A stretch of DNA of 10,290 bases from an uncultured bacterium (GTDB taxonomy: Bacteria > Actinomycetota > Coriobacteriia > Coriobacteriales > Coriobacteriaceae): assembly GCA_905214895.1 (NCBI GenBank), contig CAJMNP010000022.1:1-10290 (forward strand), in the 5' to 3' direction. A program made the translations under genes and the position numbers. Numbering within the stretch: the stretch's first letter is position 1; the number at the start of each line of letters is the position of its first letter. Shown here piece after piece: positions 4,822 to 8,446 of this stretch. The notes below the pieces were generated by a model. It ran no database searches, was not told the origin of the DNA, and was given only the letters and a program-made list of their open reading frames with translations.

Positions 4822-6054
4822 GTGGCCGTTACCGCGCTGTATGTGCACGTGCCGTTTTGCGCTCAAAAATGCCGTTATTGCGACTTTGACTCGCAAAGCG
4901 TGGCGCCGTGCGACCTGGACGCAGCGCTCGATGTCTATTTTGAGCACCTGTATGCTCGGCTCTATGCCTTTGGCAACGCTGGGGTACTCAGGCAGATCCG
5001 CACGGTCTACGTTGGCGGCGGCACGCCGTCGCTGGCAGGGGAGCGCCTGGTGAAGCTTGCCCGTTGTATCTCCATGTGGTGCGAGCCCATTGAGTTTACT
5101 TGCGAAGCCAATCCTGAGTCGCTGACCGCTGGGCTCGCCACCGCGCTTGCCGAGGCGGGCGTCACGCGCATCTCTTTGGGCGTGCAGACCCTCGACAATA
5201 CCGAGTTGGCTGTCATTGGCCGCATCCATGATGCCGAACGGGCGCTTGAGGCTATCGCGACGGTGAAGGATGTTGGGCTCGATGTGTCGTGCGACCTGAT
5301 GTGCGGCCTTCCCGGACAGACGGCCACGAGCTGGCAGCGCACGCTCGATGGCGTGCTGGCGGCGGCTCCGCATCATGTGTCGGTTTACCCGCTCACGCTC
5401 GAGGAGGGAACGCCCCTCTATCGCATGGCGTGCCGCGACGAGTCGCTTGAGCCTGATGAGGATTTTCAGGCGGCGTGCATGGACGTGGCGCGTGATTGTC
5501 TGACTGCGGCCGGCTATCACCCGTATGAGGTGGCGAGCTACGCTCTCGACGGCCATGAGTGTGCCCACAACATTGCCTATTGGACCGGACGGGGCTATCT
5601 GGGCCTGGGCCGTTCTGCCGCGGGCATGCTTGATGCCGAGGATTTCGATCGCTTGGCTGGACTGTTTCCCGGTGTGGCCCCCCGTGGTGACTTTCACCGC
5701 GTTCGTCTGGTGCAACGCGACGATGACGCGACGGCGTTTGAGGCCGAGTACCTGACGCATCGCGAGACGGCAGCCGAGGATCTGATGCTCGCTTGTCGCA
5801 TGACGCGCGGTGTCACGTCCGACCTGTTGGTTCGCGCGGCTCGTGTCATCCCTGCCGATGAACTGACGGCGGCTTGTGACCGCGCTCTTGAGCTTGGGCT
5901 TGCCACTTGGGTGCCCGAGCACGGTGATACCCATGCGGGGCCTATCGCCTCTGTCGATGTCGTCGCCGGCCGCACCTGTGCTCGCCTGGCGCCGACCCAG
6001 CTAGGTTGGCTCGATGGAAATGTGCTGTTCGAGCTGTTTTGGGGTCTAGCTTAG
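4822..6054 (+). CDS. hemW: Radical SAM haem chaperone HemW
   Basis: This encodes a 410-residue radical S-adenosylmethionine protein of the HemN/HemW family. The N-terminus YVHVPFCAQKCRYCDF contains the cluster cysteines Cys13, Cys17 and Cys20. Phe22 follows in the CxxxCxxCxF form that marks HemW rather than the oxygen-independent coproporphyrinogen oxidase HemN, which has a fourth cysteine there. Further motifs are VYVGGGTPSL, TCEANPESLT, RISLGVQTLD, DLMCGLPGQT and VSVYPLTLEEGTPLY. A HemN-type C-terminal domain follows. HemW proteins bind haem and deliver it to acceptor proteins. The region usually reading GxGAHG reads GLGRSAAGM here, so the histidine is replaced by alanine. The start is GTG at 4822, with GGAGG at 4810-4814 inside the end of dus and only 2 bases between genes, pointing to co-translation with lepA and dus. 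Many genomes mislabel this family as coproporphyrinogen oxidase. Confidence 0.9.
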   Translation: MAVTALYVHVPFCAQKCRYCDFDSQSVAPCDLDAALDVYFEHLYARLYAFGNAGVLRQIRTVYVGGGTPSLAGERLVKLARCISMWCEPIEFTCEANPESLTAGLATALAEAGVTRISLGVQTLDNTELAVIGRIHDAERALEAIATVKDVGLDVSCDLMCGLPGQTATSWQRTLDGVLAAAPHHVSVYPLTLEEGTPLYRMACRDESLEPDEDFQAACMDVARDCLTAAGYHPYEVASYALDGHECAHNIAYWTGRGYLGLGRSAAGMLDAEDFDRLAGLFPGVAPRGDFHRVRLVQRDDDATAFEAEYLTHRETAAEDLMLACRMTRGVTSDLLVRAARVIPADELTAACDRALELGLATWVPEHGDTHAGPIASVDVVAGRTCARLAPTQLGWLDGNVLFELFWGLA

Positions 6055-6070: not shown

Positions 6071-6112
6071 TACCGAAATATATACGCTGCTGTGAGCAGG
6101 AGGTTGCCGCGC

Positions 6113-7216
6113 ATGGCGACGATGAACGAAAAAGATTACTACGAGATTTTGGGTGTCTCCAAGGATGCCACCTCGCGTGATATTCAAAAGGCTTTCCAGC
6201 AAAAGGCCCGCAAGCTCCATCCGGACGTCAATAAAGAGCCGGATGCCGAGGAGAAGTTTAAAGAGGTTTCCGAGGCCTACGCCGTGCTCTCGGACGAGCA
6301 AAAGCGTGCGCGTTACGACGCCATGCGGTCGGGCAATCCCTTTGCCGGTGCACCGACGGCTTCGCCCTATGGCGGTGGCTATGCCGGCAGCGCCGGTTAC
6401 GGCAATCCCTTTGACGGCGGTTTCCCCTTCGGGGGCGCCTGGGGCCAGCCTCGTCGCGGTCAGGCGGCCTACAACCCCGAGAGTGGCGCCAACGTGGTCG
6501 TCGATATCAAGCTCGACGCCAAGGAGGCCAAGAGCGGTGCCCACAAGACCGTTCGCTACACCCGCTTTGACACCTGCGGACATTGTGGCGGCTCGGGCTC
6601 CGTTTCGTCAGAGCATGCCCACACCTGTCCGAGCTGCGGTGGTCGCGGTCATATCGATGTCGACCTGTCCTTCCTGTTTGGTGCGGGCACGTTCCAGACG
6701 GTTTGTCCTGAGTGCGGCGGTTCCGGCAAGGTCGTTGCCGACCCGTGCCCCGATTGCGGTGGCAGCGGCCGTACCCGCGTAACCTCCGAGCAGACGATTG
6801 AGTTTCCCGCCGGCACGCATGATGGCGACGAGGTGCGCATCCCCAACATGGGCCACGCCGGCACGAACGGCGCTTCGGGCGGTGACCTGGTCGGTCGTGC
6901 GCACGTTGAGGCCGAGCGCCTGGAGGGTAAGGCTCGCACCGGCTTCTACCTCATGGGCATCATCGCGCCGTTTTTGGTGCTGTCGGCCATCTCGGGCGTG
7001 TTTTCCGCCTTTGCCATGATGTGCTTCATTCCGTTTGCCATGGGCTTGTTCATGGTGCTGTCGGACGGCGTGCTTCATCGCAGTCTGCTGTGGTGGAAGC
7101 GCGGCGCGATGCAGTTTGCCAATGGATTTGCCAACGGTTTTATGTTCGCGCTCGTGTCGGTTTGGTTTGCGAGCTGCTCGCAGCGGGCCGTGCTTTCGCC
7201 GTACGGAATGCAATAA
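6113..7216 (+). CDS. DnaJ-like co-chaperone with zinc fingers and membrane-type C-terminus
   Basis: This encodes a 367-residue J-domain protein with unusual architecture. Residues 8-75 form a complete J domain with HPD at 36-38, the motif that stimulates DnaK ATPase. A Gly/Phe/Ala-rich linker covers about 76-120. The first C-terminal beta domain begins near 125 and holds four intact CxxCxGxG zinc-finger repeats (Cys155/158, 172/175, 198/201, 212/215). After [18 protein letters not shown] (to 273) the normal second substrate-binding domain and dimerisation region are absent. Residues 277-320 are instead strongly hydrophobic (one or two membrane spans), followed by a WWKR turn (327-330) and another hydrophobic stretch at about 335-355. 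I infer a membrane-tethered DnaJ with J domain and zinc fingers in the cytoplasm. The ATG at 6113 has AGGAGG nine bases upstream; a GTG at 6092 overlaps that ribosome site and is rejected. A complete dnaJ follows 81 bases downstream. No frameshift remnant of the lost domain is visible. Confidence 0.85.
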
Positions 7217-7297: not shown

Positions 7298-8446
7298 GTG
7301 TCGGAAAATAGGGATTACTACGAGGTACTTGGCGTTGACAAGAATGCCGACGCGCGGACGATCAAGCGCGCGTTTCTAAAGAAAGCCCGTACGGTACACC
7401 CGGATGTTTCGGACGACCCCGAGGCCGAGGCCAAGTTCAAAGAGCTCAATGAGGCCTATTCCGTTCTTTCCGACGAACAGAAGCGTGCTAACTACGACCG
7501 TTACGGCACCGCAGACGGCCCCGGTGGCTCTGGCTATGTCGACATTAACGATATCTTTGGCGGCATGGGCATGGACGACCTGTTCTCGTCGTTCTTTGGC
7601 GGTGGCGCCGGTGGTGGCGCTCGCAGCCGTCGCGAGCGCCGTCGCGGTCGCGATATGGCCATCTCCCTTTCGGTGACGCTCGAGGAGGCGGCGCTCGGCT
7701 GCAAAAAGACGATCAGCTACGATCGTCTTGCCCCTTGCGATGACTGCAATGGTACCGGCAAGGCCGAGGGCGCTACCGAAAAGCAGTGCAGCCGCTGTCA
7801 CGGCACAGGCTATGTGACGACGGTCCAGCGTTCTTTCCTGGGCCAGGTTCAGTCCTCTTCGCCCTGTCCCGACTGCCACGGCGAAGGCACGGTCATCGAT
7901 CATCCCTGCGAGACCTGTGACGGCCAGGGCCGCACGCCTTCTCACGATAAGATTGACATCGATATTCCCGCCGGTGTTTCGACCGGTCGCCAGCTGCGGG
8001 TGAGTGGTTTTGGCGAGGCCGGCCTTCGTGGCGAGCCGTCGGGCGACCTGATCGTTAACGTGCGTGTCGCCGACCACGAGCGTTTTAAGCGCAATGGCGA
8101 TGACCTGTATCTGGTGAGCGATATCTCGATTGCACAGGCCGCGCTCGGTTGCGAGATTGAGGTCGAGGGCATTATGCCTGACGAGGTCGTCAAGGTGTGC
8201 GTCCCCGCCGGCACACAGTACGGTGACACCGTGAGCGTCAACAATTACGGCATGCCGCGTATCGGCGGTGGCGGTTCGCGCGGTCGTCTGATCGTGCAGC
8301 TGCGCGTGGTCGTCCCCACCAATCTCTCCAACAAGCAGCGCGAGCTGCTTCGCGCCTTTGCCGACGAGATGGGCGATGACGTCGCATCCGGAAAGAAGTC
8401 GGTGACCGACCGTATCAAGAGTGCCCTCGACGACATCCTCGATTAA
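7298..8446 (+). CDS. dnaJ: Molecular chaperone DnaJ (type A Hsp40)
   Basis: This encodes a 382-residue full-length DnaJ, the co-chaperone that delivers unfolded clients to DnaK and triggers its ATP hydrolysis. Domains in order are a J domain (residues 6-70, HPD at 34-36), a Gly-rich linker (about 75-115, ending in an Arg-rich stretch RSRRERRRGR), the first C-terminal beta domain, four CxxCxGxG zinc repeats (Cys147/150, 164/167, 190/193, 204/207), a complete second beta domain (DLYLVSDISIAQAALGCEIEV) and a helical dimerisation end (SVTDRIKSALDDILD). The start is GTG at 7298, with GGAAGGA at 7284-7290 seven bases upstream; this gives MSENRDYYEVLGV, the standard beginning. Upstream in-frame ATG/GTG codons would add residues unlike the family. 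dnaK, grpE and hrcA are not adjacent, so the partner DnaK must be encoded elsewhere. mtaB begins 9 bases after the stop. Confidence 0.96.
   Translation: MSENRDYYEVLGVDKNADARTIKRAFLKKARTVHPDVSDDPEAEAKFKELNEAYSVLSDEQKRANYDRYGTADGPGGSGYVDINDIFGGMGMDDLFSSFFGGGAGGGARSRRERRRGRDMAISLSVTLEEAALGCKKTISYDRLAPCDDCNGTGKAEGATEKQCSRCHGTGYVTTVQRSFLGQVQSSSPCPDCHGEGTVIDHPCETCDGQGRTPSHDKIDIDIPAGVSTGRQLRVSGFGEAGLRGEPSGDLIVNVRVADHERFKRNGDDLYLVSDISIAQAALGCEIEVEGIMPDEVVKVCVPAGTQYGDTVSVNNYGMPRIGGGGSRGRLIVQLRVVVPTNLSNKQRELLRAFADEMGDDVASGKKSVTDRIKSALDDILD

What the first reader, a model, noticed from the sequence alone, without database searches (positions are those of the whole stretch)
6113..7216. DnaJ variant with a membrane-type C-terminus in place of the second substrate domain
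Seen directly: a complete J domain with HPD, Gly-rich linker, four intact CxxCxGxG repeats, then from about residue 274 a hydrophobic tail with two or three potential membrane spans ending in a short polar tail. From family knowledge: type A DnaJ proteins continue with a second beta domain and a dimerisation helix and are soluble. Inference: this protein tethers the J domain and zinc centre to the inner face of the cytoplasmic membrane, recruiting DnaK to membrane or secreted clients, perhaps without normal dimerisation. The gene is intact, with a strong ribosome site and clean codon use, so it looks like a maintained architecture and not decay.
Basis: partly seen in the sequence, partly recalled or inferred. 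Interest (0 to 1): 0.7.

Follow-up and report, generated by a model that had tools for sequence, protein, structure and literature searches.

The report
Membrane-anchored DnaJ-type co-chaperone of Coriobacteriales
A DnaJ co-chaperone has traded its second substrate-binding and pairing end for a set of membrane-type helices, and nearly all examined genomes of Collinsella's family and of a neighbouring family keep this gene by the ordinary dnaJ, so it looks like a long-maintained membrane version of a core folding helper and not a broken copy.

Summary
The 367-aa ORF at 6113-7216 has a J domain with HPD, a Gly-rich linker, four CxxCxGxG motifs and only the first half of the DnaJ C-terminal module (DnaJ_C positions 2-73 of 152). 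A hydrophobic tail follows, modelled by AlphaFold2 as three helices (273-294, 298-317, 325-366). It is not a local truncation: a model of the tail matches in 65 of 65 genomes of the window's family and 134 of 140 of a second, probably Atopobiaceae, and the gene lies between hemW and dnaJ in 44 of 44 named loci. A deeper branch has it too. The tail is under purifying selection (dN/dS 0.068). The copies form one clade (support 0.98), sister to the dnaJ of the order (0.93). Best explanation: a membrane-tethered class-A-derived J protein that brings DnaK to the inner membrane face; location, topology and function are inferred. New here: a near-invariant cysteine near the C-terminus, lipobox-like in 94 of 117 proteins of the two families but 0 of 19 of the deep branch. 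New variant of a known kind.

The parts
6098..6103 (+). Shine-Dalgarno AGGAGG, 9 nt before the ATG
6113..7216 (+). Gene of the membrane-tailed DnaJ variant, 367 aa
   Evidence: in the genus search 43 of 43 genomes match, 41 of them over at least residues 2-357
6134..6319 (+). J domain, residues 8-69, with HPD at 36-38
   Evidence: Pfam PF00226 E 1e-25
6341..6469 (+). Gly/Phe-rich linker, residues 77-119, predicted disordered
   Evidence: pLDDT below 50
6497..6910 (+). First C-terminal beta domain (CTD1), residues 129-266, with the zinc region inserted
   Evidence: PF01556 positions 2-73/152; strands in the model
6575..6769 (+). Four CxxCxGxG motifs, residues 155-219; all eight Cys invariant in 61 sequences
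6929..6994 (+). Predicted membrane helix 1, residues 273-294
7004..7063 (+). Predicted membrane helix 2, residues 298-317
7085..7210 (+). Helix 3, residues 325-366: WWKRG, then hydrophobic stretch, then short tail
7175..7177 (+). Codon of near-invariant Cys355 at the end of the last hydrophobic stretch
   Evidence: 60 of 61 in A3; 134 of 136 proteins have a Cys in the last 35 residues
7301..8446 (+). Neighbouring canonical class A dnaJ (context)
   Evidence: TIGR02349 394 bits, over the cut-off
4822..6054 (+). hemW-like gene upstream (context; name recalled, no family search run)
   Evidence: ORF; syntenic order

Best explanation
This is a membrane-anchored paralogue of class A DnaJ. Shown: a dnaJ relative, old in Coriobacteriales, has the J domain, G/F linker, zinc region and first substrate domain, stops at the CTD1/CTD2 boundary, and continues into a conserved tail of two to three hydrophobic helices. 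Inferred: the N-terminal part lies in the cytoplasm, the helices fix it to the cytoplasmic membrane, the J domain triggers DnaK ATP hydrolysis there, and the retained zinc region/CTD1 holds clients, so that DnaK is concentrated on nascent or misfolded membrane and exported proteins. Helix-helix contacts may replace the lost dimerisation domain. The soluble dnaJ next door and the zinc-less J protein beside dnaK and grpE would serve the cytosol.
For: Domain order. Hydrophobic tail in 136 of 136 homologues (119 of the 139 proteins then held, those of 350-400 aa, plus 17 f5 loci): tail KD19 maximum 2.04 or more, part before the tail 1.55 or less. HPD in 135 of 136 (the miss should be L099, a partial copy that starts after the J domain), at least four zinc-type motifs in 134 of 136; HPD in 61 of 61 of A3. 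Three-helix model and the same plan in the most distant branch (H275-321, H334-366). Spread: 65/65 genomes of family f1, 134/140 of f5. Position: between hemW and dnaJ in 44/44 named loci. Purifying selection: dN/dS 0.015 J, 0.063 linker, 0.035 CTD1+zinc, 0.068 tail; canonical dnaJ from residue 272 on 0.096. One clade, support 0.98. The 19 proteins found with the deep-branch tail all carry a J domain.
Against: No experiment. The positive-inside signal is weak, and the third helix is only moderately hydrophobic in the window protein (1.43). No known partner or client gene sits beside it; the neighbours look like housekeeping genes. The tail conservation is specific (WW[KR], Pro286, Cys355), more than a plain anchor needs, which hints at a further function that this explanation does not cover. 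16 of the 120 tail homologues listed have no J domain in their precomputed domains; most are short pieces, and P0009 and P0018 are fused to unrelated domains; I took these for fragments and chimaeras and did not check them.
Confidence: 0.62

Rival explanations
1. The tail is a specific membrane device (sensor, channel, or docking site for one membrane partner such as the translocase or a membrane protease) and the J domain serves that one partner, so it is a dedicated co-chaperone and not a general membrane one.
For: Invariant or nearly invariant tail residues across 61 sequences, among them F278, G282, P286, G311, W327, R330, G331, G338, A346, C355; a P-Y pair after the Cys is also kept (P363 in 55 of 61, Y364 in 43 of 61). 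One tail match per genome in 64 of 65 f1 genomes.
Against: No partner gene is linked; the conserved neighbours are lepA, dusB, hemW, dnaJ, mtaB and phoH (names recalled). The zinc region and CTD1, general client-binding parts, are also strictly kept.
Confidence: 0.22
2. The last helix works as a C-terminal type II (lipoprotein) signal: Lgt lipidates the near-invariant Cys355 at the outer face and LspA may release a short lipopeptide or leave a lipid anchor.
For: K/R-rich segment, hydrophobic stretch, then a small residue and Cys: a PS51257-like pattern (pattern recalled) in 80 of 100 proteins of the Collinsella-like set and 14 of 17 of f5. Position -1 is A/G/S in 97% against a mean of 32% over residues 333-353. 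LspA is present in 6 of 6 genomes tested.
Against: 0 of 19 proteins of the deep branch match the pattern although the Cys is kept. Other helix-3 positions are as strictly small (G338, G342, A346 at 93-98% A/G/S), so the -1 residue may only reflect packing. The stretch from Arg330 to Cys355 (24 residues between) is long for a lipoprotein signal (recalled norm). AlphaFold2 runs the helix through the Cys. The sequences are related, so counts are not independent. Lgt was not searched for.
Confidence: 0.1
3. A decaying or mis-assembled dnaJ copy.
For: Second domain missing; one genus genome (G043) has a broken copy; L070 reads in two frames in a record with masked stretches.
Against: Same architecture in two families and a deeper branch, dN/dS below 0.07 in every region, no remnant of the second domain in any frame.
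Confidence: 0.01

Closest known systems
Class A DnaJ (TIGR02349)
   Same: J domain, G/F linker, four CxxCxGxG motifs, CTD1; the tree places it as sister to the dnaJ of the order
   Different: No CTD2 or dimerisation helix; membrane-type tail; 245 bits against a cut-off of 377
E. coli DjlB and DjlC (class C, tail-anchored, partners of HscC; PMC8215388, passages read)
   Same: A J protein with a C-terminal membrane segment
   Different: Class C proteins share only the J domain with DnaJ; here zinc region and CTD1 are kept and two to three helices are predicted
E. coli DjlA (recalled: N-terminal membrane span, C-terminal J domain)
   Same: Membrane J protein; works with DnaK
   Different: Opposite order, no zinc region (recalled)
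Yeast Ydj1 (recalled: class A, C-terminal farnesyl anchor)
   Same: Class A J protein that can be held at a membrane through its C-terminus
   Different: Lipid anchor, full CTD2 and dimer (recalled)
ORANGE and ZnJ6 (plant/algal DnaJ-type zinc proteins; starts of abstracts in listings)
   Same: DnaJ-type proteins; ZnJ6 has four such zinc motifs and is thylakoid membrane-associated
   Different: Recalled: no J domain; plastid proteins

Membership tests
Class A J-domain protein (DnaJ) | J domain with HPD | tested here: met
   PF00226 E 1e-25; HPD in 61 of 61 of A3
Class A J-domain protein (DnaJ) | Four CxxCxGxG motifs | tested here: met
   PF00684 E 2e-13; eight Cys invariant in 61
Class A J-domain protein (DnaJ) | CTD1 | tested here: met
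   PF01556 2-73/152, beta strands in the model
Class A J-domain protein (DnaJ) | CTD2 and dimerisation helix | tested here: not met
Class A J-domain protein (DnaJ) | Score over the NCBIfam DnaJ_bact cut-off | tested here: not met
   245.1 against 377.2 bits
Class A J-domain protein (DnaJ) | Stimulates DnaK ATPase | not testable with these tools
   needs biochemistry
Tail-anchored J protein (DjlB/DjlC) | Single C-terminal membrane span | tested here: not met
   two to three hydrophobic helices
Tail-anchored J protein (DjlB/DjlC) | Only the J domain in common with DnaJ | tested here: not met
   zinc region and CTD1 also present
Bacterial lipoprotein | N-terminal type II signal peptide | tested here: not met
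   the N-terminus is the J domain
Bacterial lipoprotein | Lipobox-like Cys after a hydrophobic helix | tested here: inconclusive
   94 of 117 in two families, 0 of 19 in the deep branch; located at the C-terminus

The most novel reading that the evidence does not exclude
The last helix is a type II signal placed at the C-terminus of a cytosolic chaperone: the cell's lipoprotein enzymes modify Cys355 outside the membrane and may release a short lipopeptide (4 to 30 residues after the Cys), linking DnaJ/DnaK status inside to a lipid mark or signal outside.
Probability: 0.08. Interest if true: 0.85.

Novelty: new variant of a known kind. Interest (0 to 1): 0.52.

Why it matters
If it works as inferred, a lineage of mostly host-associated Actinomycetota (habitat recalled) runs a second, membrane-fixed DnaJ beside the soluble one, with a zinc centre and one substrate domain kept. 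That gives a natural test of what CTD2 and dimerisation are for, and of how DnaK is brought to membrane and secreted clients. The near-invariant tail cysteine is an unexplained feature that a single mutant could test.

Tried and rejected
Decay, truncation or frameshift: rejected. Replacement of hrcA by this gene: it sits where G128 (family f2) has hrcA (hemW-hrcA-dnaJ), but in G103 and G110 and, by eye from the translation, G233 hrcA stands between this gene and dnaJ, so it is not a simple replacement. Tail as a domain shared with other proteins: no Pfam match for three tails (two of them typed with a slip, see below). The 1042-1044 aa ORFs hit weakly in three g68 genomes look by eye like large multi-span membrane proteins without a J domain and were taken as chance. 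G361, G676, G437 and G432 (E 0.004-0.009) and the second, weak match in G003 (E 0.002) were also taken as chance and not looked at. HAIR and CIRCE operators (motifs recalled): none in the window at up to 3 mismatches. PDB fold search: the rows shown were mostly DnaJ/Hsp40 or J-domain chains; I did not examine matches to the tail.

Literature: nine searches of the held open-access library listed no paper whose title or shown abstract start describes this architecture; listed papers were mostly not opened. Barriot et al. 2020 on bacterial J proteins, named in PMC8215388, was looked for under a DOI that I recalled and is not held; it may list this architecture. PMC8215388, PMC11677576 and PMC7157817 were seen as passages only.

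Full report
What is there. The ORF at 6113-7216 (+) encodes 367 aa behind AGGAGG at 6098-6103. Pfam finds a J domain (8-69), the CxxCxGxG region (155-219) and DnaJ_C, but only profile positions 2-73 of 152; the next gene (7301-8446) matches the whole DnaJ_C and passes the NCBIfam DnaJ cut-off, while this protein scores 245 of the required 377 bits. From residue 274 the chain is hydrophobic: 19-residue Kyte-Doolittle windows reach 2.23 over 274-322, with a weaker third peak of 1.43 at 343-361; the maximum in the canonical neighbour is 1.06. AlphaFold2 on 61 sequences gives the J domain, a disordered linker, the CTD1 strands and three helices, 273-294, 298-317 and 325-366. The relative placement of the parts is uncertain (pTM 0.53).

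It is a conserved gene family. In the window's genus 43 of 43 genomes have a match, which includes their canonical dnaJ; 41 have this gene over at least residues 2-357. G033 has only a C-terminal piece, at 333-367, and G043 has a broken copy with the middle missing. With a model of the tail alone, 65 of 65 genomes of the family (6 of 6 genera) match (G033 only by that piece), and 134 of 140 genomes of a second family, f5. The six misses there have completeness 57, 68, 69, 73, 79 and 91%; among genomes at least 90% complete and at most 5% contaminated it is 100 of 101. Names: the loci are Collinsella, Enorma and Coriobacteriaceae; a relative of an f5 protein is labelled Atopobiaceae (P0148), so f5 is probably Atopobiaceae. 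One genome of a third family (G045, f3) has a 370-aa version directly upstream of its dnaJ, and 18 further proteins share its tail; of two other f3 genomes one had no match and one a 20-residue match at E 0.02. In the order search 157 of 297 genomes matched at E 0.001, all f1, f5 or G045. In the class search 133 of 296 matched at E 0.01, all f1, f5 or G045 apart from G361 (f19, E 0.007). In the phylum search 17 of 296 matched: 14 clear f1 and f5 members and three weak ones (E 0.004-0.009). No other phylum was searched genome by genome.

Place in the genome. In 44 of 44 named loci hemW, this gene and dnaJ follow in that order; 40 of 44 show the full order lepA, dusB, hemW, this gene, dnaJ, mtaB, phoH, and in L070 the gene reads in two frames in a record with masked stretches (gene names recalled). 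Of the 17 f5 loci fetched, 14 have it directly next to dnaJ; in G110 and G103 hrcA lies between, and in G233 an ORF that by eye is HrcA-like. Two f2 genomes were looked at: G128 has hemW-hrcA-dnaJ and G118 has hrcA-dnaJ with about 3 kb between hrcA and hemW; neither locus holds this gene. HrcA matches were found in 59 of 120 genomes of the order; the only f1 genome among them, G105, has a 36-position scrap. In G001 the third J protein is a 321-aa one without the zinc motifs, downstream of grpE and dnaK (named by eye).

Origin and selection. A FastTree tree of 77 sequences (209 columns of J domain and CTD1/zinc; 31 tailed, 46 canonical; midpoint root) puts the 31 tailed proteins in one clade (0.98), sister to the canonical DnaJ of the order (0.93), so the likely origin is an old dnaJ duplication followed by exchange of the C-terminal half; the branch order inside the canonical set of the order is partly unsupported. 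Among the window and 19 Collinsella loci (95% or more identical) dN/dS is 0.015 (J), 0.063 (linker), 0.035 (CTD1 and zinc) and 0.068 (tail); canonical dnaJ gives 0.044, 0.031, 0.023 and 0.096 over the same residue ranges.

The tail. Across 61 sequences the strictest positions include G277, F278, G282, P286, G311, R323, W327-W328, R330, G331, G338, A346, S354 and C355. A Cys lies in the last 35 residues in 134 of 136 proteins; 17 of these have more than one there. In the Collinsella-like set and f5 it sits in a lipobox-like setting in 94 of 117; in the deep branch in 0 of 19, although the Cys is kept. The mean charge pattern is weakly compatible with an N-in topology, by which the Cys would lie at the outer face. 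LspA is present in 6 of 6 genomes tested. This is a lead, not a demonstration: alternatives are a packing residue (other helix-3 positions are as strictly small), a disulphide or a metal contact.

How it most likely works. Shown: architecture, conservation, position, selection and ancestry. From established knowledge of the family (recalled, and passages of PMC8215388): J domains with HPD stimulate Hsp70, CTD1 and the zinc region bind clients and DnaK, CTD2 and the C-terminal helix complete the dimer, and membrane-anchored J proteins place Hsp70 at membranes. Inferred: this protein tethers a J domain, zinc centre and one substrate domain to the inner face of the cytoplasmic membrane and brings DnaK to membrane or exported clients. 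Rivals are a dedicated membrane partner, and lipid processing of the C-terminus.

Comparison and novelty. It is class A by descent and by parts, but lacks the second domain and dimeriser that complete the class, and it fails the DnaJ_bact cut-off; it is not a DjlB/DjlC-type protein. I therefore call it a new variant of a known kind. Nine searches of the held open-access library listed no paper that by title or shown abstract describes it; where sources name it the names are general, such as 'DnaJ domain-containing protein', 'heat shock protein DnaJ domain protein' or 'DnaJ-class molecular chaperone', and one relevant survey could not be read.

Mended: the f5 neighbourhood (14 of 17 direct, not 17), the f2 loci, what the HPD count rests on, the typing slips, and results against the reading.

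Noticed in passing
L106 3424-5356 (G241, 1.0-Mb genome, 94% complete): The canonical dnaJ ORF next to the membrane-tailed gene is only 259 aa and matches canonical DnaJ to residue 210, while the tailed gene is intact; possibly the tailed copy is the one kept in a reduced genome.
   Followed up: no
L098 4437-7746 (G110), L099 (G103), L090 3346-4479 (G233): hrcA (in L090 HrcA-like by eye) lies between the tailed gene and dnaJ here; the only f1 genome with an HrcA match has a 36-position scrap, so hrcA may have been lost from this slot.
   Followed up: partly
G043:C2:660573-661170: Broken copy of the gene, middle part missing; the one clearly broken copy seen in the genus search.
   Followed up: no
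window 7022-7024 (Cys304): A second tail Cys, in helix 2, is present in 52 of 61 sequences of A3; it could pair with Cys355.
   Followed up: no
window 7199-7204 (P363-Y364): A Pro-Tyr pair after the Cys is kept (P in 55 of 61, Y in 43 of 61), so the short C-terminal tail is also constrained.
   Followed up: no
L111 5854-9664 (G001): dnaK, grpE and a zinc-less 321-aa J protein in a row (named by eye): with dnaJ and the tailed gene, three J proteins of DnaJ type in the genome.
   Followed up: partly
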